From positions 1-64,000 of the forward strand of contig NZ_JACXZA010000005.1 in NCBI RefSeq assembly GCF_014779765.1: a stretch of 64,000 bases of DNA, in the 5' to 3' direction. The stretch is from Paenibacillus terricola (lineage in GTDB: Bacteria; Bacillota; Bacilli; Paenibacillales; Paenibacillaceae). Positions 48,606 to 61,764 of the stretch are shown here, one piece after another (within the stretch, counting starts at the first letter, position 1; each line of letters opens with the position of its first letter). The notes below the pieces were generated by a model that did not search any database, was not told the DNA's origin, and was given only the letters and a program-made list of their open reading frames with translations. The position numbers were made by a program, and so were the translations under genes.

Positions 48606-49395
<790 letters not shown>

Positions 49396-49437: not shown

Positions 49438-49983
49438 TTATGTTCTAATTAAGTGAAATAGGTCCCCCCCAATATCTGTGTATAGCTCTCCTTCATTAGA
49501 GCTAGAGTAATAGTACACGTTAGTGTAGTAATCTACTTTTTCATCCCCATAAAATAAATCCTTTAATAATTTATCCTTGTAAATACTTATTAATTTAAGT
49601 TTATCAACATCTAGATCGCTAATGCTTCGCAGCCAATCAGTGGTATTATAAAAATCTTCACTACTACTATCTTCTATTTGATAATAAATAGGCTGTATCA
49701 TTTCACTACCGATTTGAATAGAATCAAGGGAAAGAGTGATCTCCATTCCTATTATGTTCTTTATATCTTCTTCGTCATTTCTACTACCGCCCTCACCATA
49801 CGCATAGACATTATCGATCTTCCATTTACCAATAATCTTGCCTAGTGGTTCCTTTAGCTCGCCTACTTCGGAAGCATGGGATTCCGAAGCCAATACCGAA
49901 GAACTTTGCGTGATTTTATCTGTTTTACCACTACATCCAGCTTCAATAATAGTAAGCATAATTAGAATTACACTAAAAGCCAT
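49438..49983 (-). CDS. Lipoprotein downstream of the orphan Rhs tip (candidate immunity protein)
   Basis: This protein has about 181 residues. The start is the ATG at 49983, with GAGAGG about 10 bases upstream. A signal peptide has lipobox IEAGC. The mature part (GKWKIDNVYAYGEGG..., DLDVDKLKLISIYKDK) is not a family I know. It starts 32 bp after the orphan Rhs lysozyme-like gene, the position of immunity genes in polymorphic toxin loci. A wall-degrading toxin would need protection outside the membrane, which fits a lipoprotein. A truncated paralogue lies at 51366-51656. Confidence 0.65.
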   Translation of the reverse strand: MAFSVILIMLTIIEAGCSGKTDKITQSSSVLASESHASEVGELKEPLGKIIGKWKIDNVYAYGEGGSRNDEEDIKNIIGMEITLSLDSIQIGSEMIQPIYYQIEDSSSEDFYNTTDWLRSISDLDVDKLKLISIYKDKLLKDLFYGDEKVDYYTNVYYYSSSNEGELYTDIGGDLFHLIRT

Positions 49984-50015
49984 CTTGAACAATCCTCTCA
50001 CCCTTCCAACTATTT

Positions 50016-51060
50016 CTAGAAATCTTTTGGTATCTCTCGGTCTGGATAGGGTTGATATTCTCCAAGCGCAAATATCTCCCATTCATCATATCTTCGACGA
50101 TATAGACCAGGTAGTTTCTTACCACTTCCTTTTACCCACTGCAACATTTCATTTTTAAACTCTTCGGAAGTATAGTTACCTTCTTTTAACATCTTTCCTG
50201 GATCACTCTCCAGAAAATTCCCACCATTAAACTTCCAACTTACAAGCGCATCATATTCTTGTTGTAATAATGAAACACTATTTTTCTCAGTAAATGCATT
50301 AACATAATTCTCAGCCTTTGTTTTCATATCAGACTTTAATAACCCAAGCGCTTTTTCCTTCGTTATTCCATTTGAAGGGAACTTTTCTCCCTTCAAAATT
50401 TTGTGACCATAACCGATTGTTTGTATACCTCGTTTTTTTTCATCTGGTGTCGCATAATATGGTTTGGCTGAGAACTTCTCATAAGACTTTATAAAATCTG
50501 CAATTTTTTCACTCGCAACATGATATGTGCTTTTGATGGTCAGCCCTTCATAATATTTTTGACACGATTCTTGTGAATTACATACAGAATCATGTCCACT
50601 AGGATCAATAAGAAGAAGCGGATTATTCTTCACATAAGTATAAAGATTCAAACTTAGCGGCTGCTTCATATCCCCCAGATACGTATCCTCACTAATAAAC
50701 CGCCCGATGCTCGAGTCAAAATACCGCGCACGCGCATAGCTCAGTCCGCTAGTAAAGTCATATTCCAGTCCCGTAAAACCAACTAAGTTATCTGTTCCCA
50801 TCCAATTCGGATCGAATTTCTCCGTTGCCTTTGGATTACCAAACTCATCATATTCGTAACGAGCTGCGACCTGTCCGCCATCGAGATCGGGCTGCCCAGA
50901 GCATCATTCACGTAGTAAAGCATCTGGCTGGTGTTCTTGAAGTTTCCTATACCCAGTGTCGGTGCCCAACCTGAATTCGGATCCTCCGTTGGCACATACG
51001 ACATGCCAAGCTTCTCATCGCCCGCGCCGTACAGGTACGTTTCTCCCCAATTTGGTACGG
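50016..51060 (-). pseudogene. Displaced Rhs C-terminal cassette with GH24-like lysozyme tip
   Basis: The first half (about 50580-51060) is nearly identical in DNA to 54350-54845 of the complete rhs gene and encodes the Rhs core SYARARYFDSSIGRF and NNPLLLIDPSG. Relative to the complete gene a 10-bp deletion near 50880 shifts the frame. The intact 3' reading frame (50016-50801) has a different tip after NSQESCQ: YEKFSAK... then IQTIGYGHKI, characteristic of phage-type (GH24) lysozymes, where a Glu before and the GYGH region shape the site. There is no signal peptide or start for the core, so it looks like a silent tip reservoir that could recombine into the main gene. Confidence 0.75.
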
Positions 51061-51365: not shown

Positions 51366-51656
51366 TCATACTCTCAATAGGTGGAACAGTTCACCATCAA
51401 TCTCTGTGAAGAGCCACCCCTCATCTGAGTAATAATATAAATTTCCCTTACCAAAATACAGATCCTTAAACGAACTATCTTTATAAATTATTATCACCTT
51501 AAGCTTATCAACATCCAAGTCACTATAAACACGCAACCAATAAGCCGTTCCGAAAGCATTTACATTAGTACTATCTTCTATTTCAAAATATATGGGCTTT
51601 ATCATTTCACTATCAATCTGAATAGAATCATAGGACAAAGACAAAGTGATCCCCGT
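51366..51656 (-). pseudogene. Truncated lipoprotein gene, paralogue of 49438-49983
   Basis: About 96 codons end LFTEIDGELFHLLRV and align with the 3' half of the gene at 49438-49983 (DSIQI.SEMI.PIYF.IEDS, WLR.YSDLDVDKLK). The 5' half, including signal peptide and lipobox, is missing, with a stop just upstream. It is probably a leftover of an older immunity gene. Confidence 0.8.
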
Positions 51657-51877: not shown

Positions 51878-52816
51878 CTAAAGTTCAAATGAATCACTCG
51901 TAATTGTCACATCAAGGTTCAATTGTTTTAATTGTACACCATATTCTTTGTTCATCCCCGAGACATGCAATGATTCTATTGTCGGGAAGTACTCCTTCAA
52001 GTTGATTAAGTCTACCTCTACATTGCTTAATATGAAACTTATATGCTTGGCGTGTTGCAGCCCTCCAATCTCGGTCAGATTCATTGCCTGGGTACAGCTA
52101 TTAACAGTTAACCACTCCAAGTTCTCGAACATTCTTAACGTACTTAAATCTAGCTTTTTGCAACTATCCACTATCATTCTTTTAATGATGCTATTATCTC
52201 CCGTAAACCGTTCAAGATTTCGGCAACCTAGTACATTAATTTCAATTAACCTTTCTGTGGCCGCAGTGTTTCCTAACTCTTTAAATTTACAACTTTTAAA
52301 GTAGATACTCTCCAACGGCACATCTTTCCACTCCAATAAATTCGGTTCAATACTGGAATGGTAAATATCGATTGTCTGTAGCTCCTTGCAGCCAGCCACC
52401 GCCGAGAAGTCTTCGGTTCGTTCCACATGAAGAAGCATACGTTTGACTTCTGCTTGAGAAAGCTGGGACAGATCTCTTCGCCGATTTTTGTGAGTGTGGA
52501 TTCTAATAAATTCCCCTTTACTGAACAACTCCACGCCGTCTAAAGATTTAATTTGGTGTCCATAAATAGACAAATACTCTAAATTCGTAAAAGCACGCAA
52601 TACACGAAGATTACTTAATGAGGAGTTCCAGTTAATTGTTAGACTCTTCACTCGGTCAATGCCTTCCAATTGACGTAAATGCTCTGTAAGTGCCTCAATG
52701 TCAACTTTATCGTCTAACTGGTTAACCAGTTGCAAACTGTTATATTGTTCTTCTATGTGAGTCAACTCTGCGAATCGACTCTCTTCCAATTCCAGCTCCT
52801 CTAACACTCGTTTCAC
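51878..52816 (-). CDS. Leucine-rich-repeat-like cytoplasmic protein
   Basis: This protein of about 312 residues has no signal peptide or membrane segment. Repeating hydrophobic units such as LRAFTNLEYLSIYGHQIKSL and LRMFENLEWLTVNSC, each about 20-25 residues, resemble leucine-rich repeats. The function is unknown. Start uncertain: GTG at 52816 lacks a good site, while a second GTG three codons later follows AGGTG. It sits between two lipoprotein genes of the Rhs region. A cytoplasmic LRR protein among secreted toxin partners is unusual, and it may be an unrelated cargo gene. Confidence 0.7.
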   Translation of the reverse strand: MKRVLEELELEESRFAELTHIEEQYNSLQLVNQLDDKVDIEALTEHLRQLEGIDRVKSLTINWNSSLSNLRVLRAFTNLEYLSIYGHQIKSLDGVELFSKGEFIRIHTHKNRRRDLSQLSQAEVKRMLLHVERTEDFSAVAGCKELQTIDIYHSSIEPNLLEWKDVPLESIYFKSCKFKELGNTAATERLIEINVLGCRNLERFTGDNSIIKRMIVDSCKKLDLSTLRMFENLEWLTVNSCTQAMNLTEIGGLQHAKHISFILSNVEVDLINLKEYFPTIESLHVSGMNKEYGVQLKQLNLDVTITSDSFEL

Positions 52817-52851: not shown

Positions 52852-53592
52852 TTATGTTAATTCAATTACAGAGACTAACTTAAATTCCTGACCCTCCTTA
52901 TGAAAGACTGCCCAGTTTCCCGTCAATTCTGTGTAAGGGTCAAAAATTGCACTGCTTTTTGTAAATGCATAATAGTCATCTTTTAACGCAAATACTTGAG
53001 CAATGTCCTTATTATTATTAACAATAATCTGTAAAAGCTTTTGGTAGAGTGCATCTAAACTATTTTTAAAATCAACCTCATTTAACGATTGCCAATCAAT
53101 ATTCAACGAAAACTGTTGAAGAAACTCTGATCGTTGTATCGGAATGTCCGTCTGTAAATCATCATTGTTCCTAAAACCCATACTAGGAAGGGTAATCCCA
53201 AGGTATCCATCCGTTGATTCTAAGACTAAATCTTCTCTCAGTTTCTCTTTATCCACATGTATCCCCACATTTGGATCCCTACCATCTGTAAAGTAAGTCA
53301 TTGAATACAACCCATTCGGATGTATAATTTCCTTCAATAACTGCAAATCCGGCGTTTTAATAGCAGTTTTAAATTTGTCAATTGTAGCAAGTATCCGTAC
53401 ATCATCCGGGTTTATTAGCAGTTGATCTTTGTCCTCCACGATATCCTGTCGAGAATTTTCATCAGCACCTTTTGTCACAGAATCTGTAAAATTCGGCTTC
53501 GTTCCGTGATTTCCACATGCTGTTAAGGTAAAGAACACTATTATTAAAACAAAAAAGATAACGCTAGACTCTTTTAATCTATTAGTATACAA
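52852..53592 (-). CDS. Lipoprotein linked to the Rhs protein (candidate immunity protein)
   Basis: This 246-residue protein starts with TTG at 53592, with AAGGAGG 7 bases upstream. A signal peptide has lipobox LTAC; the mature part begins GNHG. There is no known family. It follows the rhs stop by only 15 bp on the same strand, the position of immunity genes. A lipoprotein on the outer face would be well placed to neutralise a wall-attacking toxin tip. A decayed second copy of its 3' end lies at 44689-44836. Confidence 0.7.
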   Translation of the reverse strand: MYTNRLKESSVIFFVLIIVFFTLTACGNHGTKPNFTDSVTKGADENSRQDIVEDKDQLLINPDDVRILATIDKFKTAIKTPDLQLLKEIIHPNGLYSMTYFTDGRDPNVGIHVDKEKLREDLVLESTDGYLGITLPSMGFRNNDDLQTDIPIQRSEFLQQFSLNIDWQSLNEVDFKNSLDALYQKLLQIIVNNNKDIAQVFALKDDYYAFTKSSAIFDPYTELTGNWAVFHKEGQEFKLVSVIELT

Positions 53593-53607: not shown

Positions 53608-56600
53608 CTAATTATCTCCGTGAATTGTATAATTCCCATCTGCTTTTCCGAGATTGTTTTGTGAATCTTTGTAAGGATTAAATTTGTATGCGGGTAGACT
53701 TGAGATTACCCCTTTGGTAATATCTGTTACTACACTGCTACTAATACTTGAAATATAACTTTCATACGTGTCTGACATGCCTGCAGAACCCAAACTATTA
53801 TAGAGACTTTTAACCGCAACATGCCAGGTTCCCATACCTGCGTATACTCCGGTTTCAACTTTCTTTTCTGTTAACTTTATATTCGGGGTTCTCCAGTTTA
53901 TATATTGATACACATTTCCAGTCAGACCTTTGATACCTCCCTTAGACTGATTCTTTGATACCGCTTGCCTAAAATCCGATCCGTAATAAATATATCCAAG
54001 TACCTTTCCAACCAATAAATTAAGCGCCTTCTTAACATCTTTAGCAAAATCAGTTTCTACTCCATTTTGACCGTCTGCCGCTTTGTTAGAGCTACTAGTG
54101 TTAAAACTTCCTGTTCCTTCTTGAATAACTATTGCAAGGAATATCCTAGGGTCAATTTGAATGCCGTATTTATCCTTAATGTCTTGTGCACCTTTCCAAA
54201 GTGTATGAATTTTATCTTGACTCCATTTTAACTTTTTAAATTTACCAAGTGCTTTAGCTAAATATTTTTCTTGAACTGTTTTACCATCTAACTTCATTTC
54301 GGTCGGTATAAAGTTTTGTTGATATAGTTCATACACCCGTTGACACGATTCTTGAGAATTACATACAGAATCATGTCCACTAGGATCAATTAATAGAAGT
54401 GGGTTATTCTTTACATAAGCATACAAATTAAGTGTCAGCGAATCCCTCATATCCCCCAGATACGTATCCTCACTAATAAACCGCCCGATGCTCGAGTCAA
54501 AATACCGCGCACGCGCATAGCTCAGTCCGCTAGTATAGTCATAGTCCAGTCCCGTATAACCAACTAAGTTATCTGGTCCCGTCCAATTCGGATCGAATTT
54601 CTCCGTTGCCTTTGGATTACCAAACTCATCATATTCGTAACGAGCTGCGACCTGTCCGCCCTCTGTCAACATCGAGATCGGGCTGCCCAGAGCATCATTC
54701 ACGTAGTAAAGCATCTGGCTGATGTTCTTGAAGTTTCCTATCCCCAGTGTCGGTGCCCAACCTGAATTCGGATCCTCCGTTGGCACATACGACATGCCAA
54801 GCTTCTCATCGCCCGCGCCGTAGAGGTACGTTTCTCCCCAATTCGGTACGTCCGAATCGGACACCTGCAGTACTTGAGGCAGCGCCGCTGCTGGATCGAT
54901 CACGTAGTTGTAGGTGTGGTTCTTCTGCTTATATTTCGGTTCCCAGCCGCCAACTGTTAATCCTGACGGATTAGAAGTCGGGTATTGGTCTTCCTCCTGT
55001 GGATTCGTTAGCTTCACTGCCATTTGCAGACGATTGCCATCACCATCGTAGCGGTACGTTGACTTGTTGCCGTACTCATTCGTCTGCTCGACCAAACGGT
55101 TGGCTGCGTTCCACTTGTACTGCTGCAACGTGCCCTGCCTCGTTGAACCACTGCTGCTGTCGACACCAGCTACCTTCGTCATATTGCCGCGACCATCGTA
55201 AGTGTAATCTTGGTAGTCTGTACCTCGCTCCAAGTGTGTCAAATGATCCGCCGCGTCGTAGGTATATTTCTCCGTTACAGTCGCCGCGCCGGGACGAGCC
55301 GTCGAGACTTTCGTCAGGCGATTGCCGACCTTATCATAGGTATAGCTCGCATGATTGCCGCCTTGCTCATTCGCTTGCAGCAACTGATTAAGCGCATCAT
55401 ATGCGAAATCCGTAATGATCGTCTTTGCGGTGCCGCTTGGGTTCTCCTCGTCCTTGCCGCTTTCGGTACGCTTCACTTGTTCACGGTTGCCTACAGGATC
55501 GTATTCATAGATTAGCTGCTCCAAGACTTTACCGCCGGCATCCGCTTGCTTCATACCGGTCACTTGGCCGACTGCATCGTACGTATACGATTGCGTTGCT
55601 TGATTCGGCAGCGTCTTCGTCAATATCGCGCCTCGCTTGTCGTAGGTGTAAACCGTATTCGTGTTACTCATATCACTGACCGTGATCATCCGGCCATTCA
55701 AATCATACGTATAGCCAACGCCCTTCTGATTCGGATACACAATCCGGCTGCGTTGGTTGCCTGCCGTCCACTCATATCGAACAGCAGTGCCGTCCGGACT
55801 CGTTACACGAATAAGTCGATCCAGCGCATCGTATCGATAATCGGTCGTTCCGTTGGCATCCTTCATCGACGTACGGCGTCCATGCTTGTCGTAGCCGTAT
55901 GAGACAGCAGCATTATCCGCGTATTTGATCTGCGTGACCCGGTTCATCTTGTCATACGTGTATGCCGTTGCTTGACCATCTGGAGCCGTCTGTTTCTCCA
56001 CATTGCCGTTCGGGTCATAGGTGCGCTTCGTGGTCTGACCGAGCGGGTTGGTCTGCTCCAATAAAAGCCCTGTCGCATCATAGCTGTACTTTGTTTCACG
56101 CTCTTCGGCATCGACTCGCTTCTCGACGTTGCCTGCCGCATCATACGTGTATCTTGTCGTATCATTTAATGCATTCGTGACAGAGGTGAGACGACCAAGC
56201 GTGTCATAGCCGTACTTCGTCACGCCGCCATTCGCATCGGTCACCTGCAGCAATTGACCGATATCGTCATATTCGTATACCGTTACAGCATGGTTGGCAT
56301 TCGTAATTGTCTTGACCTGATCCAACGCATCATATTCATATTTTGTTACATATCCAAGTTCATCCTTGGTTTCACTGATACGTCCACGGTCGTCGTAAGT
56401 CTGTACTGTCCTATTGCCCATTGCATCTACGGACGCCTTCACCCGACCTGCTGCATCATACTCCGTCTTCCATACACCGCCGTCTGGTCTGGTCGTCTCC
56501 GTGAGACGGCCAGCATCATCATAGGTATATCTCGTTGCTTGGTTGAGCGTATCGACCTGTGTCTGCAAGCCGCGCTCATCATATCGATAGTTCGTTATAT

Positions 56601-59600
56601 AACCAAGCTCATTGACTGACTTGACTAATTGACCATTCGCATCGTATTCATTCTGAACAATGCCGCCTTCTGCGTCGGTCGTCTTCACTAGCTTATTGCT
56701 GGCATTGTATTCATAGGTCGTCTTGCCGCCTTTCGGCGTCGTAATGGTCGCTTGATTGCCATTGGCATCATACGTAAAAGTAGTTGCTCGTCCAGATGCG
56801 TCTGTTGTAGACACTAGTTGATTCAGAGCATTGTACGCCGACTTCGATTTGCCGCCTTTCGGATCGGTTGACTCTATGACATTACCTACTTCATCCGCTA
56901 ATGTGACAAACGTATTTCCTTGTGCGTCCGTCACCGTACTCGTATGAGCCGAACGATCCTCCGCATAAACAGTTGTCGCACCAGAGACATCCGTCGACGA
57001 GACGACGTTGCCATCTACGTCATATTGCGTAGTCGAAGCATTGCCCTTCGCATCACGGCTCTCAATAATACGATCCATCGCATCATACACGTTTGTCACA
57101 ATCGTACCGATGCCGTCCGATTGACTGATAAGCCGGTTCAGACTATCCCGATCATTCCGCTGCAGCTTACCCGTCGCGTCTGTTACCGTCTTCTGCAAAC
57201 CCGCTGCATCGTAAGTGTAGACTGTCTTGCCTTTCATCGGATCGATAACAGCCGTCACATTACCCTGGCTGTTGACCTCGTAGGTCGTCTGTGCTCCAGA
57301 CGGGTCCGTAATCCCCTTCAAATTTCCCTTCGTATCGTACTGATACGCAGTCTCATGACCGAGTGCATCGAAGGAAGCGACCTGTTGATTCTTGACGTCA
57401 TAGCGGCCCGCTGTCGCAAAGCCCATCTCATCCCGCGACACGAGCAGATTCCCGTGCAGATCATAACGGTTTAGCGATGCCTTGCCCTTGAAATCCACCA
57501 CTTTAACAAGATTGTCATTCGCATCGTAGGCAAAAGTCTCTTTCGTCCCATTCGCCTGCGTGTATACCGTGTTGCGATGACGTGAGTCATACTCGAACGT
57601 CGTCTTTCGTCCAAGCGGATCGGTTACCGTCGTCTGCTTGCGCTTCACATATTTCGTCGTAGATGCAGCTGCCACTGTCGTCTGTACTATAGCCGTCTTC
57701 GCCGTCGTTCCGCCTGACGAACTTCCGCTTGTAGTCGCATACGTTAGAATCGTATGTCCGCTGCCTACGCCTGTCTGTACAGCTGGCTTCTGATTCGGCG
57801 TGAAATCTCCGCCTACTGCGAAGTATCCGCCCGTCTTCACCGATAGGTTGTTGTTGACTGCCACGTTGTTCCGTACGAACAAGTCACCTGTCAGATCGAG
57901 CTGTGCCAACTGGTTATTAGATACGATCTCGCCGACCGTCATGTTGTCACTTACGTTCATATCAACCTTTGTATTGATGTTCAGGTTGTCCTTAATAACG
58001 ATCTGCTTCGCATCAACCGTCAGCAGGCCGTTGTTGTACACGAGGTTGCCCGCGCGAAGCGTACCGTCGATCTGAATAATAGAATCATTATTCAGGTGCA
58101 GGCTGTCCTTTACCCACACGTTGCCTTGCTCCACATTGCCGCCATTGTGTGCTTTGATCGTTAACGCTTGGTTACCGTTCAGACTACCTTTGACAATGAG
58201 CGTGCCGTATACGTCGATCGTCAATGCTTTGTTAGAGTTGATGCCGTCGACGATGACAACAGCCGGCTTCGACGCCGAACCGAGTGTGATGCTGTTCTCA
58301 AGGTTGAGATAGTTCCCCTTCACGACAGGCAGACTGCCGCTTGCTGCCGCAACTGCCTTACGCATGCCGTCTGCATCGCAGTTGTCACAGCGGACCGCTG
58401 TGCCTTCATAGCCTGCAATCCGTGTATCGATCGCCGAGAGCTGCTGATCAAGATAGCGCCCGATCTCTTCCTTCAACCCCACCACTTGAACATATGGCGG
58501 AGCATTCCGTTCATTGTTCATTCGTCCAGACAACAGTACCGAGCTGCCGTTGCCAATATCCTTCGGCGAGGATGGATCGATACGCGTTGTGCTGCCGCTA
58601 TTGTCACCACCACCTGTATCGCTTGGTGCGCCTGGCTCCGTCCCCTCTTCGAGCACTTCGTATTGATAGCCATAGTCCGTCCCATAGCCGTCTGAATAAG
58701 CAGTGACACGGCCCTTGTCATCATAACCAATCGTCGTAACCTCTTTACCTGAAGGGCTCGTCACGCTAGCGATATGATGACTGCTGTCGTACGTATACGT
58801 AATCTTCGTATCGTCTGCTTGTTTCAGACTAATCATGTCGCCTTTCGCGTCATACTCGAACCCGATGGAGCGTCCGCTCGGATCGGTAACGGAAGCAAGA
58901 CGGCCGCCCGTATAAGTCAGCGACAGAGACGCGCCCAAAGTCGCAACCCGCGATAGCTGCGTACCCGAGTAGGAGAGCGTAATTGCGTTGCCGTTCGAGT
59001 CTGTAATGGAGGCCAGCTGTCCGTCCCCACGGAACGCATACGTCACTTGACCCGCCGAGGTCAGTGCGAACGTGCCGTCACTGCGCTTTGTCAGCGAGGC
59101 TGTCTCCCCGCGGGGGCTCATATAACTGCGGTCCGTCAGCGGTACATATTCCGACTTGCTGCCGTTCGGATCGGTCACAATGACCGTACCGCCCGTCTGT
59201 TCTTCTACACGCCACTCATAGCCGTGATGCCAGCCTACGCCAAGTGCACCTGCGTCGTTATCCCGGCTGCGCTTGCTGATTGTGAAATCAATCGGCATCA
59301 ACGCGTCGATGGATAATCCGCTGTAACCGTAGACGTAATCGCCCGTCGCCAGATCGACGGGTCCACCTTGCGTCGAGTTGTCATAGACGAGACGAACTGC
59401 GATTCGCGCAGCCGTGAACTGCGGCAGCGCCGCTTGCGCCACACTGCCGTCCATCAGCGGATCGACGAGCAGCATATTGGTTCCCGATGGGACTTTCTCT
59501 ACACACTGATTGCCGCCCGCGCACAGGCTGGCTGCTCCCGTGATGTTATTGGTCAGCGCGATATCCTTAACCTTCGCTACCGTATCCGCAATGGTATCCG

Positions 59601-60420
59601 TCTTATAATAGAAGCCTGCAAGCTGCTCCCATGTCACATCGTACGCCGGCTTCACATAGCGCATCACCGTCAATACATCCGATACGCCAGTGCTCAAGCC
59701 GTCCTTCTCGGCCGTCGCCGTAATGTTCACGATTCGGTTAGCCGGGAGCGTCACCTTCGTACTCCACTTGCCAGAACCGGACGCCATGACGTTCTTTACC
59801 GTCTGCTGATCCACACCATTCGCATCGAATACCTCGACCGTTACAGTCGATCCTGCATCTGCTTGTCCACTCACGCTGTACTGATCGCCCGTTGCCGCAG
59901 GCTGGAGCGTCAACTGTGACGGTGCTGCCGGCTGTGGTGAAGCAACGATCTCGACCTTGGCAATGTCGCTGTAGTTGTTCGCGCTAGCTCCATCCGGAAT
60001 GACGCAGATGCCGTATTGGCCCGGGTCGAGCGTCTTGCCCCCAACCGTGCCATCCCAGACGTAGCTGTTTTCTACTCCGCTGCCGGTCGGGAATGATTTG
60101 CGCACAATTAATCCATTGCTCACTTCAATCGGCTTGCCGCCCTCTGGATTCGTTGTACATAACGTGATCTTCGTCATATGCGACGTCTCGGAACCCGGAT
60201 TATCGAATGTAAAATAAATCGTTGCCGGCTCGCCGCTCAGCGCATTGAACTGATTCGGCTCCACGCGCATGATCGTATCGGCATACGCTTTCTTCGTGCC
60301 TAGAATACTCGTACTATCGCTGCTTGCCCCTGGATACAGAGGCACGCCTGTAATCATAATGATAGCTGCCATTGCCAGGCTCAGCGATCGGATGTACCAT
60401 CGTTTCGTCTTCCTGAACAC
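53608..60420 (-). CDS. Giant secreted Rhs/YD-repeat protein with lysozyme-like C-terminal tip
   Basis: This 2270-residue protein starts with GTG, with GAGGTG upstream. A signal peptide ends near KKAYA. Residues about 50-160 look like a FlgD-type Ig domain, and about 165-250 like another Ig-type unit. About 345-430 matches the DUF6531-type start of Rhs shells (PIDFTISKRSRDNDAG). A long YD-repeat array follows. Residues about 647-877 interrupt it with a beta-helix-like, bactofilin-like N/V/L-rich segment. The Rhs core SYARARYFDSSIGRF and DPSGHDS mark the end of the shell near 2010. The variable tip (about 2025-2270) contains DPRIFLAIVIQEGTGSFN, reminiscent of lysozyme-like folds with a catalytic Glu in IQEG. 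Rhs shells in Gram-positives carry toxins of this kind. Cell-wall attack is inferred. Confidence 0.88.
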   Translation of the reverse strand: MFRKTKRWYIRSLSLAMAAIIMITGVPLYPGASSDSTSILGTKKAYADTIMRVEPNQFNALSGEPATIYFTFDNPGSETSHMTKITLCTTNPEGGKPIEVSNGLIVRKSFPTGSGVENSYVWDGTVGGKTLDPGQYGICVIPDGASANNYSDIAKVEIVASPQPAAPSQLTLQPAATGDQYSVSGQADAGSTVTVEVFDANGVDQQTVKNVMASGSGKWSTKVTLPANRIVNITATAEKDGLSTGVSDVLTVMRYVKPAYDVTWEQLAGFYYKTDTIADTVAKVKDIALTNNITGAASLCAGGNQCVEKVPSGTNMLLVDPLMDGSVAQAALPQFTAARIAVRLVYDNSTQGGPVDLATGDYVYGYSGLSIDALMPIDFTISKRSRDNDAGALGVGWHHGYEWRVEEQTGGTVIVTDPNGSKSEYVPLTDRSYMSPRGETASLTKRSDGTFALTSAGQVTYAFRGDGQLASITDSNGNAITLSYSGTQLSRVATLGASLSLTYTGGRLASVTDPSGRSIGFEYDAKGDMISLKQADDTKITYTYDSSHHIASVTSPSGKEVTTIGYDDKGRVTAYSDGYGTDYGYQYEVLEEGTEPGAPSDTGGGDNSGSTTRIDPSSPKDIGNGSSVLLSGRMNNERNAPPYVQVVGLKEEIGRYLDQQLSAIDTRIAGYEGTAVRCDNCDADGMRKAVAAASGSLPVVKGNYLNLENSITLGSASKPAVVIVDGINSNKALTIDVYGTLIVKGSLNGNQALTIKAHNGGNVEQGNVWVKDSLHLNNDSIIQIDGTLRAGNLVYNNGLLTVDAKQIVIKDNLNINTKVDMNVSDNMTVGEIVSNNQLAQLDLTGDLFVRNNVAVNNNLSVKTGGYFAVGGDFTPNQKPAVQTGVGSGHTILTYATTSGSSSGGTTAKTAIVQTTVAAASTTKYVKRKQTTVTDPLGRKTTFEYDSRHRNTVYTQANGTKETFAYDANDNLVKVVDFKGKASLNRYDLHGNLLVSRDEMGFATAGRYDVKNQQVASFDALGHETAYQYDTKGNLKGITDPSGAQTTYEVNSQGNVTAVIDPMKGKTVYTYDAAGLQKTVTDATGKLQRNDRDSLNRLISQSDGIGTIVTNVYDAMDRIIESRDAKGNASTTQYDVDGNVVSSTDVSGATTVYAEDRSAHTSTVTDAQGNTFVTLADEVGNVIESTDPKGGKSKSAYNALNQLVSTTDASGRATTFTYDANGNQATITTPKGGKTTYEYNASNKLVKTTDAEGGIVQNEYDANGQLVKSVNELGYITNYRYDERGLQTQVDTLNQATRYTYDDAGRLTETTRPDGGVWKTEYDAAGRVKASVDAMGNRTVQTYDDRGRISETKDELGYVTKYEYDALDQVKTITNANHAVTVYEYDDIGQLLQVTDANGGVTKYGYDTLGRLTSVTNALNDTTRYTYDAAGNVEKRVDAEERETKYSYDATGLLLEQTNPLGQTTKRTYDPNGNVEKQTAPDGQATAYTYDKMNRVTQIKYADNAAVSYGYDKHGRRTSMKDANGTTDYRYDALDRLIRVTSPDGTAVRYEWTAGNQRSRIVYPNQKGVGYTYDLNGRMITVSDMSNTNTVYTYDKRGAILTKTLPNQATQSYTYDAVGQVTGMKQADAGGKVLEQLIYEYDPVGNREQVKRTESGKDEENPSGTAKTIITDFAYDALNQLLQANEQGGNHASYTYDKVGNRLTKVSTARPGAATVTEKYTYDAADHLTHLERGTDYQDYTYDGRGNMTKVAGVDSSSGSTRQGTLQQYKWNAANRLVEQTNEYGNKSTYRYDGDGNRLQMAVKLTNPQEEDQYPTSNPSGLTVGGWEPKYKQKNHTYNYVIDPAAALPQVLQVSDSDVPNWGETYLYGAGDEKLGMSYVPTEDPNSGWAPTLGIGNFKNISQMLYYVNDALGSPISMLTEGGQVAARYEYDEFGNPKATEKFDPNWTGPDNLVGYTGLDYDYTSGLSYARARYFDSSIGRFISEDTYLGDMRDSLTLNLYAYVKNNPLLLIDPSGHDSVCNSQESCQRVYELYQQNFIPTEMKLDGKTVQEKYLAKALGKFKKLKWSQDKIHTLWKGAQDIKDKYGIQIDPRIFLAIVIQEGTGSFNTSSSNKAADGQNGVETDFAKDVKKALNLLVGKVLGYIYYGSDFRQAVSKNQSKGGIKGLTGNVYQYINWRTPNIKLTEKKVETGVYAGMGTWHVAVKSLYNSLGSAGMSDTYESYISSISSSVVTDITKGVISSLPAYKFNPYKDSQNNLGKADGNYTIHGDN

Positions 60421-60491: not shown

Positions 60492-61517
60492 CTATCCCTT
60501 CCGAGCCATCGTCCGAAGAGAGATCGTTCCTTTCGCGCTATCCTGCAAGACGATATCATCGCCGTTAAAGCCTAGATAAGTCTTGCCAGCCCCTATATTG
60601 CCGATCGTATACACTTCGCCAGTTGATAGATTGACGCCGCGCATGACGAGCTTGCCGTTCATGTTCTCCGCCCATGCTCCTCGCGTCGCACCGATGAACA
60701 TAATCGACGATTCGGTTTTCTTAACCGACGGATCCGTCAGCGCACGCGCCTTCGCCCCGCTCTTCACAGGCAGCATGACATAACCCGAATTGTTATTGCC
60801 GCTCTCGCGCTGCTTCCACAGCACGGTCGTGCCATTGAACACGAACCAGTTCACGTACTTACCCTTGGACGGCGTATACAGCGTGCTCGACTTGTCGGAG
60901 GCCACGTCATAGATGGAGAGGGATTCCCCGAACTCATCCTTATACACGATCTTGCCGCTGCCAACGACCGGGAAACGACCTAATCCAAACATGTAGTCCC
61001 ATGGATCGTCGAAGTTGTACAGGTACATCTCGTTTGTATCCGTACGCGACCATACGATATGGCGGCCGCTTATGCTAATGTTCGTGAAAGGCCCAACCGC
61101 GCTGTTGAGCAAAATTACCTTATTCGCTTTAATGTCATAGGCCTTCACGTCCCATAGGACGGAATCCGCGGCATAAGATCCCTTGTCCAGCCAAGCAATG
61201 TAGCTGTCGCTTGCCTTCGGCGAGCTCTTCGCGGCGCTGCCGACGCTGACCGCCATCTTCTTGCCCGTCTTCACATTAAGCCACATCACCTGCTGCGCCC
61301 CGCTCTTGTCCTTCTCCACCCAGACAATCTGCGAAGTGCCGCCTGTCATTCGGTCCGTGGCTTTCGCAGCGGAAGCCGGTACGGTATAAGCCGTCACCCG
61401 GTCCTTCGCTACATAGGTGACAGCCGCCATAACCGATGCTGCAGCGAGCAGCGAGACTAGCGCCAACAGCGCTGTCACCGTGATCGACCTTTGCATTGTT
61501 TTACTGCCAAACATCAT
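60492..61517 (-). CDS. Secreted beta-propeller-like protein under riboswitch control
   Basis: This protein has about 341 residues. The ATG at 61517 has GGAG 8 bases upstream; the longer reading from 61595 would run through the riboswitch. A signal peptide (QRSITVTALLALVSLLAAAS) is followed by recurring units of the TolB/propeller type (SGRHIVWSRTDTNE, GSGKIVYKDEFG, FNGTTVLWKQRES, GFNGDDIVLQD). No enzyme motif is visible. Only 71 bp separate it from the rhs start, and no terminator is visible between them, so the two are probably one transcript. It may assist assembly or delivery of the Rhs protein or simply share its regulation. Confidence 0.8.
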   Translation of the reverse strand: MMFGSKTMQRSITVTALLALVSLLAAASVMAAVTYVAKDRVTAYTVPASAAKATDRMTGGTSQIVWVEKDKSGAQQVMWLNVKTGKKMAVSVGSAAKSSPKASDSYIAWLDKGSYAADSVLWDVKAYDIKANKVILLNSAVGPFTNISISGRHIVWSRTDTNEMYLYNFDDPWDYMFGLGRFPVVGSGKIVYKDEFGESLSIYDVASDKSSTLYTPSKGKYVNWFVFNGTTVLWKQRESGNNNSGYVMLPVKSGAKARALTDPSVKKTESSIMFIGATRGAWAENMNGKLVMRGVNLSTGEVYTIGNIGAGKTYLGFNGDDIVLQDSAKGTISLRTMARKG

Positions 61518-61565
61518 TGCATCGACTCCTATCGATAGTTGTGAACAGCACAAATACAAGCTAAT

Positions 61566-61660
61566 CCGAGCAACCCGGCTATCGTGCCGCTCCATCCGGA
61601 ACGGTGTTAGACCCGTGGCTTTGCGTCCCCGCCTTTCGGCCGAGTTTGCCTTTGTTCTGA
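61566..61660 (-). ncRNA. Cyclic di-GMP-I (GEMM) riboswitch
   Basis: On the minus strand the sequence contains the diagnostic GEMM blocks: GGCAAAC, a P1b-type stem CTCGGCCGAAAGGCGGGG with the GAAA loop, GACGCAAAGCC, ACGGGTCTAA, and a closing GCCGGGTTGC. This is the consensus of the c-di-GMP-I class, which senses c-di-GMP and controls motility, adhesion and surface genes. It is followed by the gene at 60492-61517, whose start is 49 bases further. No terminator follows the aptamer, so control may be at translation or of unknown sign. Confidence 0.93.
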
Positions 61661-61764
61661 TACTTGTAGATCAAATAAGTCCTTCCATATAGGTCGCTAG
61701 AAATGCAGCAATTTGGCTGTTTATTCCACAATTTTCGACACAATTTACCTTTTTCCTTTACAAA

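What the first reader, a model, noticed from the sequence alone, without database searches (positions are those of the whole stretch)
61566..61660. c-di-GMP riboswitch heading a secreted Rhs toxin operon
The GEMM aptamer sits at the head of a propeller-like secreted protein gene, followed at 71 bp by the giant rhs gene and its candidate immunity gene, all on one strand. Control of a contact-type Rhs weapon by c-di-GMP would tie toxin deployment to the motile-sessile switch.
Basis: partly seen in the sequence, partly recalled or inferred. Interest (0 to 1): 0.8.

Follow-up and report, generated by a model that had tools for sequence, protein, structure and literature searches.

The report
c-di-GMP riboswitch on Rhs toxin operon
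In Paenibacillus-like soil bacteria, an RNA sensor for the "swim or settle" signal c-di-GMP sits at the head of a two-gene operon encoding a surface propeller protein and a giant, swappable-tip toxin; the arrangement is kept across six genera, so these bacteria probably couple contact warfare to their lifestyle switch.

Summary
Confirmed and extended. A c-di-GMP-I (GEMM-I) aptamer lies at window 61659-61565 (-), above Rfam's thresholds (RF03167 62.9 bits, RF01051 61.5), with the canonical c-di-GMP contact bases G20/A47/C92. It precedes a secreted beta-propeller gene, a 2270-aa secreted Rhs gene 71 bp further on, and a lipoprotein (candidate immunity). Of 31 other propeller+Rhs loci in the family (Paenibacillus, Cohnella, Thermobacillus and others), 25 carry the same aptamer just upstream; one genus lacks it. 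The Rhs N-terminal type and the propeller are near-obligate partners (32 of 34 genomes). Relatives' propellers carry C-terminal SLH wall-anchor domains, which the window copy lacks. Rhs tips are hypervariable, with orphan tips and partner genes: a polymorphic toxin system. Relatives share an unusual compact expression platform, a U-run 11-15 nt after the aptamer with an extended P1 helix abutting it, which suggests transcription attenuation. Whether c-di-GMP turns the operon ON or OFF is unresolved (I lean ON, by analogy to the Geobacter pilM switch). In the window copy the U-run has decayed, so its own switching mechanism is uncertain. Ligand binding, co-transcription and toxicity are untested. 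No paper linking a riboswitch to an Rhs toxin was found in the library searched.

The parts
61565..61659 (-). c-di-GMP-I (GEMM-I) aptamer, canonical G20/A47/C92 contact triad
   Evidence: Rfam RF03167 62.9 bits and RF01051 61.5 bits, both above gathering; triad read from alignment
61545..61684 (-). Leader: aptamer plus extended P1 (UACAAG/CUUGUA kept); U-run seen in relatives degraded here
   Evidence: alignment A5
61517..61540 (-). Shine-Dalgarno AGGAG in a 7-bp hairpin (UAUCGAU-AGGA-GUCGAUG) just before the start codon; possible translational element
   Evidence: not better than shuffles (z 0.53), so weak
60492..61517 (-). Secreted beta-propeller protein, 341 aa, signal-peptide-like N-terminus, no SLH domains (relatives have them)
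53608..60420 (-). Rhs protein, 2270 aa, signal-peptide-like N-terminus, DUF6531, 23 RHS repeats, Rhs core, variable C-terminal tip
53608..54330 (-). Rhs C-terminal tip, unclassified candidate toxin domain; 44-52% identical to ~400-aa Paenibacillus-family proteins, each beside a lipoprotein gene in the three loci read
52852..53592 (-). Candidate immunity lipoprotein (lipobox LTAC), 15 bp after the Rhs stop
   Evidence: position and lipobox only, no family
50016..50801 (-). Orphan Rhs tip with phage-lysozyme domain
   Evidence: PF00959 8e-23; homologous to intact Rhs tips in L102 and L109, E about 1e-95
49438..50082 (-). Candidate immunity lipoprotein of the orphan tip
   Evidence: homologous to the gene after the matching Rhs tip in L102 and L109, E about 1e-33
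51878..52816 (-). LRR-like protein of the tip region, probable cassette or immunity gene
   Evidence: homologs in Rhs regions L095 and L107, E 1e-125 and 4e-118

Best explanation
A conserved c-di-GMP-I riboswitch controls a two-gene surface-weapon operon in Paenibacillaceae. SHOWN computationally: an intact aptamer, adjacency to a secreted propeller and a secreted Rhs polymorphic toxin, and conservation of the whole arrangement in six genera. INFERRED: c-di-GMP binds the leader RNA and decides whether RNA polymerase passes a compact attenuator directly after the aptamer. The downstream strand CUUGGUU pairs either with the leader's 5' strand AACCAAG (extended P1, ligand-bound form) or with the aptamer's own P3 3' strand AGCCGGG, giving a terminator before the U-run (ligand-free form). 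This is the logic of the Geobacter pilM ON switch; I put ON at about 60% and OFF at about 40%. Propeller and Rhs are then co-expressed and exported; in relatives the propeller is held on the cell wall by SLH domains and may display or anchor the Rhs protein. The Rhs tip attacks neighbouring cells and the lipoprotein protects the producer at its own surface. In the window the attenuator has decayed, so control there may be translational or weakened.
For: Aptamer scores and contact bases; 17 GGDEF domains in the same genome, so the ligand is plausibly made; the four other aptamers of this genome precede chemoreceptor, PilZ, glycosyltransferase-operon and VWA surface-protein genes. Aptamer directly upstream in 25 of 31 other propeller+Rhs loci, against about five aptamers per 6.8-Mb genome. 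32 of 34 genomes with this Rhs N-terminus have it next to the propeller. SLH in relatives. Hypervariable tips with HINT, lipase-like, Tox-WTIP, PlyCA-like and lysozyme domains, and orphan tips. Platform: U-run 11-15 nt after the aptamer in 27 of 33 module leaders against 37-91 nt in most of 43 other aptamers of the family; P1-region pairing -15.1 against -7.4 kcal/mol; own-partner pairing stronger than swapped partners, p = 0.0003 on 12 divergent leaders. Alternative terminator at or below -7.4 kcal/mol in most leaders. pilM precedent: PMC9262584.
Against: No binding, transcript or phenotype data. One genus (six propeller+Rhs loci) has no aptamer, so the riboswitch is dispensable. Aptamers also precede propellers without Rhs, so the propeller may be the real target. 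The window copy has no U-run and little sign of the alternative terminator, and its leader folds no better than shuffles. The direction of control is not settled: the extended P1 also abuts the U-run and could itself terminate. The window propeller lacks SLH domains, so wall display is not shown for this strain. The permutation tests do not fully remove phylogenetic relatedness.
Confidence: 0.72

Rival explanations
1. The riboswitch serves the propeller (an adhesin or surface-layer protein); Rhs is co-expressed as a passenger, or has its own promoter.
For: 7 of 9 propeller loci without an adjacent Rhs gene keep the aptamer; c-di-GMP riboswitches often control surface and adhesion genes (VWA surface protein in this genome).
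Against: Rhs follows the propeller within about -20 to +60 bp in 31 loci and 71 bp in the window, and 32 of 34 such Rhs genes have the propeller upstream; no terminator-like site lies between them in the window.
Confidence: 0.2
2. OFF switch: c-di-GMP stabilises the extended P1, which abuts the U-run and acts as the terminator stem, so the weapon is made in the motile, low-c-di-GMP state.
For: Extended P1 is the stem next to the U-run most consistently present, including L116, where the alternative hairpin is weak. Precedents: Cd1 is a transcriptional OFF switch (PMC9262584) and Vibrio TfoY is made only at low c-di-GMP and induces T6SS (PMC6618264).
Against: A compact terminator using the aptamer's own P3 3' strand also exists in most leaders, as in the ON-type pilM switch; a stem closing a roughly 100-nt aptamer loop is an unusual terminator.
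Confidence: 0.35
3. In the window strain the riboswitch is vestigial: the aptamer persists but the platform is broken and expression is constitutive.
For: No U-run after the aptamer and weak extended P1 pairing (-9.4 kcal/mol) compared with relatives; propeller truncated relative to SLH-bearing relatives.
Against: All contact bases and the GAAA tetraloop are kept and the aptamer scores above gathering; P1-extension pairing UACAAG/CUUGUA is kept despite sequence change; the ribosome-binding site sits in a hairpin loop.
Confidence: 0.25
4. The aptamer senses another cyclic dinucleotide (c-AMP-GMP) or an unknown ligand, as suggested by the variant family name.
For: Best-scoring Rfam model is the GGC variant by 1.4 bits.
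Against: The base that selects c-di-GMP over c-AMP-GMP is G here (PMC9481103; alignment), position 47 is A (not the variant's G), and both are kept in the module leaders read.
Confidence: 0.06

Closest known systems
c-di-GMP-I (GEMM-I) riboswitches, Rfam RF01051
   Same: Aptamer structure, GAAA tetraloop, contact triad G20/A47/C92, position at the head of surface, motility and signalling genes
   Different: Target is a polymorphic-toxin operon; compact platform with an extended P1 running into a U-run 11-15 nt after the aptamer (relatives)
Geobacter pilM c-GAMP ON riboswitch (PMC9262584)
   Same: Terminator built from aptamer 3' strands plus a strand close downstream, mutually exclusive with the bound aptamer
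   Different: Ligand base G20 here; extended P1 competes for the same strand; the switch is not tested
Bacillus subtilis WapA and Streptococcus suis WapA (Rhs/YD polymorphic toxins of Gram-positives; PMC5566331, PMC12704120)
   Same: Exported RHS/YD-repeat protein with a variable C-terminal toxin tip and a partner immunity gene
   Different: Here paired with a separate propeller(-SLH) protein and headed by a riboswitch; N-termini were not compared directly
Vibrio TfoY control of T6SS (PMC6618264)
   Same: c-di-GMP controls deployment of an antibacterial weapon
   Different: Indirect, through the regulator TfoY, in Gram-negatives; here the aptamer is on the toxin operon itself
C. difficile flgB riboswitch (PMC11477304)
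   Same: Class I c-di-GMP riboswitch affecting toxin output in a Bacillota member
   Different: Indirect, through SigD and TcdR, and concerns host toxins rather than interbacterial ones

Membership tests
c-di-GMP-I riboswitch (RF01051) | Covariance-model score above the curated threshold | tested here: met
   61.5 bits against 35
c-di-GMP-I riboswitch (RF01051) | Ligand-contact bases G20, A47, C92 | tested here: met
   Read from alignment; G20/A47 also in relatives
c-di-GMP-I riboswitch (RF01051) | Binds c-di-GMP and changes gene expression | not testable with these tools
   Needs in-line probing and reporters
c-di-GMP-I-GGC variant (RF03167) | G at position 47 (model consensus; reading of the name inferred from the model) | tested here: not met
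   A at position 47, although the model scores 62.9 bits
Rhs/YD polymorphic toxin | RHS/YD repeats and Rhs-associated core before a variable tip | tested here: met
   PF05593 2e-153, TIGR03696 2.9e-17
Rhs/YD polymorphic toxin | Conserved body, hypervariable tips, orphan tips, partner genes | tested here: met
Rhs/YD polymorphic toxin | Tip is toxic and neutralised by the partner | not testable with these tools
   Own tip has no family match
pilM-like ON switch | Terminator uses the aptamer 3' strand and excludes the bound fold | tested here: inconclusive
   Predicted in most relatives, not seen in the window; direction unknown
SLH-anchored surface protein | SLH domains in the propeller protein | tested here: not met
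   Absent in the window copy; found in four of six relatives scanned

The most novel reading that the evidence does not exclude
A dedicated c-di-GMP-controlled contact-weapon operon of Gram-positives: riboswitch, wall-anchored propeller and Rhs toxin form one co-evolving unit in which the propeller displays or docks the Rhs shell, and a compact attenuator with shared P1/terminator strands makes weapon production depend directly on the motile-sessile signal.
Probability: 0.4. Interest if true: 0.78.

Novelty: new variant of a known kind. Interest (0 to 1): 0.64.

Why it matters
The links between c-di-GMP and toxins or antibacterial weapons that I found in papers run through intermediate regulators. 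Here the sensor RNA lies directly on the toxin operon, and the link is kept across genera, so the question whether contact weapons are reserved for settled or for swimming cells becomes testable with one reporter. The near-obligate propeller(-SLH) partner is also a concrete candidate for how such Rhs toxins are held at a Gram-positive surface.

Tried and rejected
(1) The GGC-variant label: rejected on A47 and the near-equal RF01051 score. (2) The ATG at 61595 as start: inside the aptamer. (3) Structure of the own Rhs tip: single-sequence model pLDDT 37.6, unusable; PDB and Pfam searches of the tip and its family gave nothing significant. A lysozyme/transglycosylase-like role (conserved E-G-T-G) is only a guess. 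(4) RNAalifold on the leaders recovered P1b, P2 and P3 but not the extended P1, because the 5' strand is shifted in the alignment; I used own-versus-swapped duplex energies instead. (5) An anti-P1 hairpin (AAGCAC/GUGCUU) exists only in some leaders and does not decide ON or OFF. (7) Literature searches for riboswitch with Rhs, YD repeat, polymorphic toxin, or SLH with Rhs in Paenibacillus found no earlier report in the held library; most subscription papers are not held.

Full report
OBSERVATION. cmscan of the whole window against Rfam gives one hit: a c-di-GMP-I-type aptamer at 61659-61565 on the minus strand (62.9 bits with RF03167; 61.5 bits with RF01051). The contact positions, mapped on the alignment, are G20, A47 and C92. 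The base at position 20 is the one known to select c-di-GMP (G) or c-AMP-GMP (A) (PMC9481103; that its circled position is position 20 is from my own knowledge). The variant model 'GGC' wins by 1.4 bits only, and its position-47 G is A here, so I treat this as an ordinary c-di-GMP-I aptamer. Reading the name GGC as bases 20/47/92 is my inference from the model.

GENES. The aptamer is followed after 47 nt by the ATG of a 341-aa protein with a signal-peptide-like N-terminus. It has no Pfam family and one weak propeller-repeat hit. AlphaFold with 14 relatives gives a propeller at mean pLDDT 83.6, and Foldseek finds oligogalacturonate lyase and TolB. After 71 bp comes a 2270-aa protein with a signal-peptide-like N-terminus, DUF6531, 23 RHS repeats and the Rhs core. 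Fifteen bp after its stop is a 246-aa lipoprotein-like gene. Further down are an LRR-like protein, a truncated lipoprotein paralogue, an orphan Rhs tip with a phage-lysozyme domain, its lipoprotein partner, and an IS21 IstB remnant.

CONSERVATION. In 396 genomes of the family, 40 in 7 of 19 genera encode a relative of the propeller; none of the five other genomes of the window's genus does. I fetched 40 regions. In 31 of them a giant Rhs gene (about 2000-2500 aa; two run off the contig) with an N-terminus homologous to the window's follows directly. A GEMM-I aptamer with the GGCAAA and CGC[A/G]A signatures lies just upstream of the propeller in 25 of these 31; Rfam confirmed 21 of them by model and the other four rest on the sequence pattern. 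The six without are all one genus, where Rfam found no riboswitch up to E 0.1 in the loci searched. Of nine loci with a propeller but no adjacent Rhs, seven keep the aptamer. A search from the other side, with the Rhs N-terminus in 392 genomes, found 34 genomes; 32 are the same loci, and the other two have a different secreted partner and no aptamer. Named carriers of the full arrangement include Paenibacillus helianthi, P. sinensis, P. prosopidis, P. mangrovi, Cohnella laeviribosi and Thermobacillus xylanilyticus. With about five aptamers per 6.8-Mb genome, chance adjacency is negligible.

THE TOXIN. Rhs tips differ from locus to locus after a conserved core: HINT pretoxin, Tox-WTIP, lipase-like, PlyCA-like and lysozyme domains, and several unknowns, often with further orphan tips downstream. 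This is the anatomy of a polymorphic toxin. The window's orphan lysozyme tip and its lipoprotein match the tip and following gene of intact Rhs genes in L102 and L109. The window's own tip has no family; relatives at 44-52% identity occur as about 400-aa proteins, and in the three loci read each lies beside a lipoprotein gene. A lipoprotein partner fits a toxin acting outside the membrane; this is inference.

THE PROPELLER. Four of the six relatives scanned carry SLH domains (two or three repeats each); the other two lack them, and further aligned relatives share the same C-terminal region. The window copy ends after the propeller. Display of Rhs on the wall by the propeller is a hypothesis.

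THE SWITCH. In module leaders the first U-run starts 11-15 nt after the aptamer in 27 of 33, against 37-91 nt in 33 of 43 other aptamers of the family, and the strands flanking the aptamer pair far better (-15.1 against -7.4 kcal/mol). Partners from the same leader pair better than swapped ones (12 divergent leaders, p = 0.0003), so the extended P1 is probably real, though relatedness is not fully controlled. The same downstream strand can instead pair with the aptamer's P3 3' strand (mostly -7.4 to -10 kcal/mol, weaker in the remaining leaders), placing a compact hairpin before the U-run. The Geobacter pilM switch works in a similar way and is ON; Cd1 is OFF (PMC9262584). I lean ON, about 60:40. 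In the window the U-run is reduced to UAUUUGUG and the alternative hairpin is not evident; the ribosome-binding site lies in a small hairpin loop, no better than shuffles.

CONTEXT. The same genome has 17 GGDEF domains. Its other four aptamers precede a chemoreceptor, a PilZ protein beside an HD-domain gene, an operon with a family-2 glycosyltransferase, and a VWA/TIG surface protein next to genes that look like fliD and fliS (the fliD/fliS naming is by eye). The Rhs operon therefore looks like part of a c-di-GMP regulon of surface and motility functions.

VERDICT. The parts are known; the combination, its conservation and the compact platform appear new within the literature I could search.

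Noticed in passing
own genome C15:264817-264903 (L006) and C2:20044-20135 (L008): Two other GEMM-I aptamers of this genome, before a chemoreceptor and a PilZ gene, carry A at the position that selects c-AMP-GMP over c-di-GMP; similar aptamers in the same genus alternate between A (L022, L027) and G (L020, L026).
   Followed up: partly
window 48766-49014: IstB_IS21 fragment (PF01695 4e-25) in a broken reading frame beside the orphan Rhs tip, suggesting an insertion-sequence remnant in the tip region.
   Followed up: partly
window 51878-52816: LRR-like protein with close homologs (E 1e-125, 4e-118) in the Rhs tip regions of L095 and L107; probably a travelling cassette or immunity gene.
   Followed up: partly
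window 51366-51644: Truncated paralogue of the orphan-tip lipoprotein (E 1e-26), a remnant of an earlier cassette.
   Followed up: no
L241, L242, L247: Relatives of the window's Rhs tip are joined to an N-terminal module MKWKEPTFGATPMLKALT with no Pfam or PHROG match, possibly an unknown export or delivery domain.
   Followed up: no
L121, L122, L123: Riboswitch plus propeller joined to other C-terminal domains (copper-amine-oxidase N-terminal-like and MORN in L121) with no Rhs gene: another use of the same riboswitch-propeller head.
   Followed up: no
L237, L238: Two genomes carry the same Rhs N-terminal type behind a different 1450-1800 aa secreted protein and no riboswitch, an alternative partner.
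   Followed up: no
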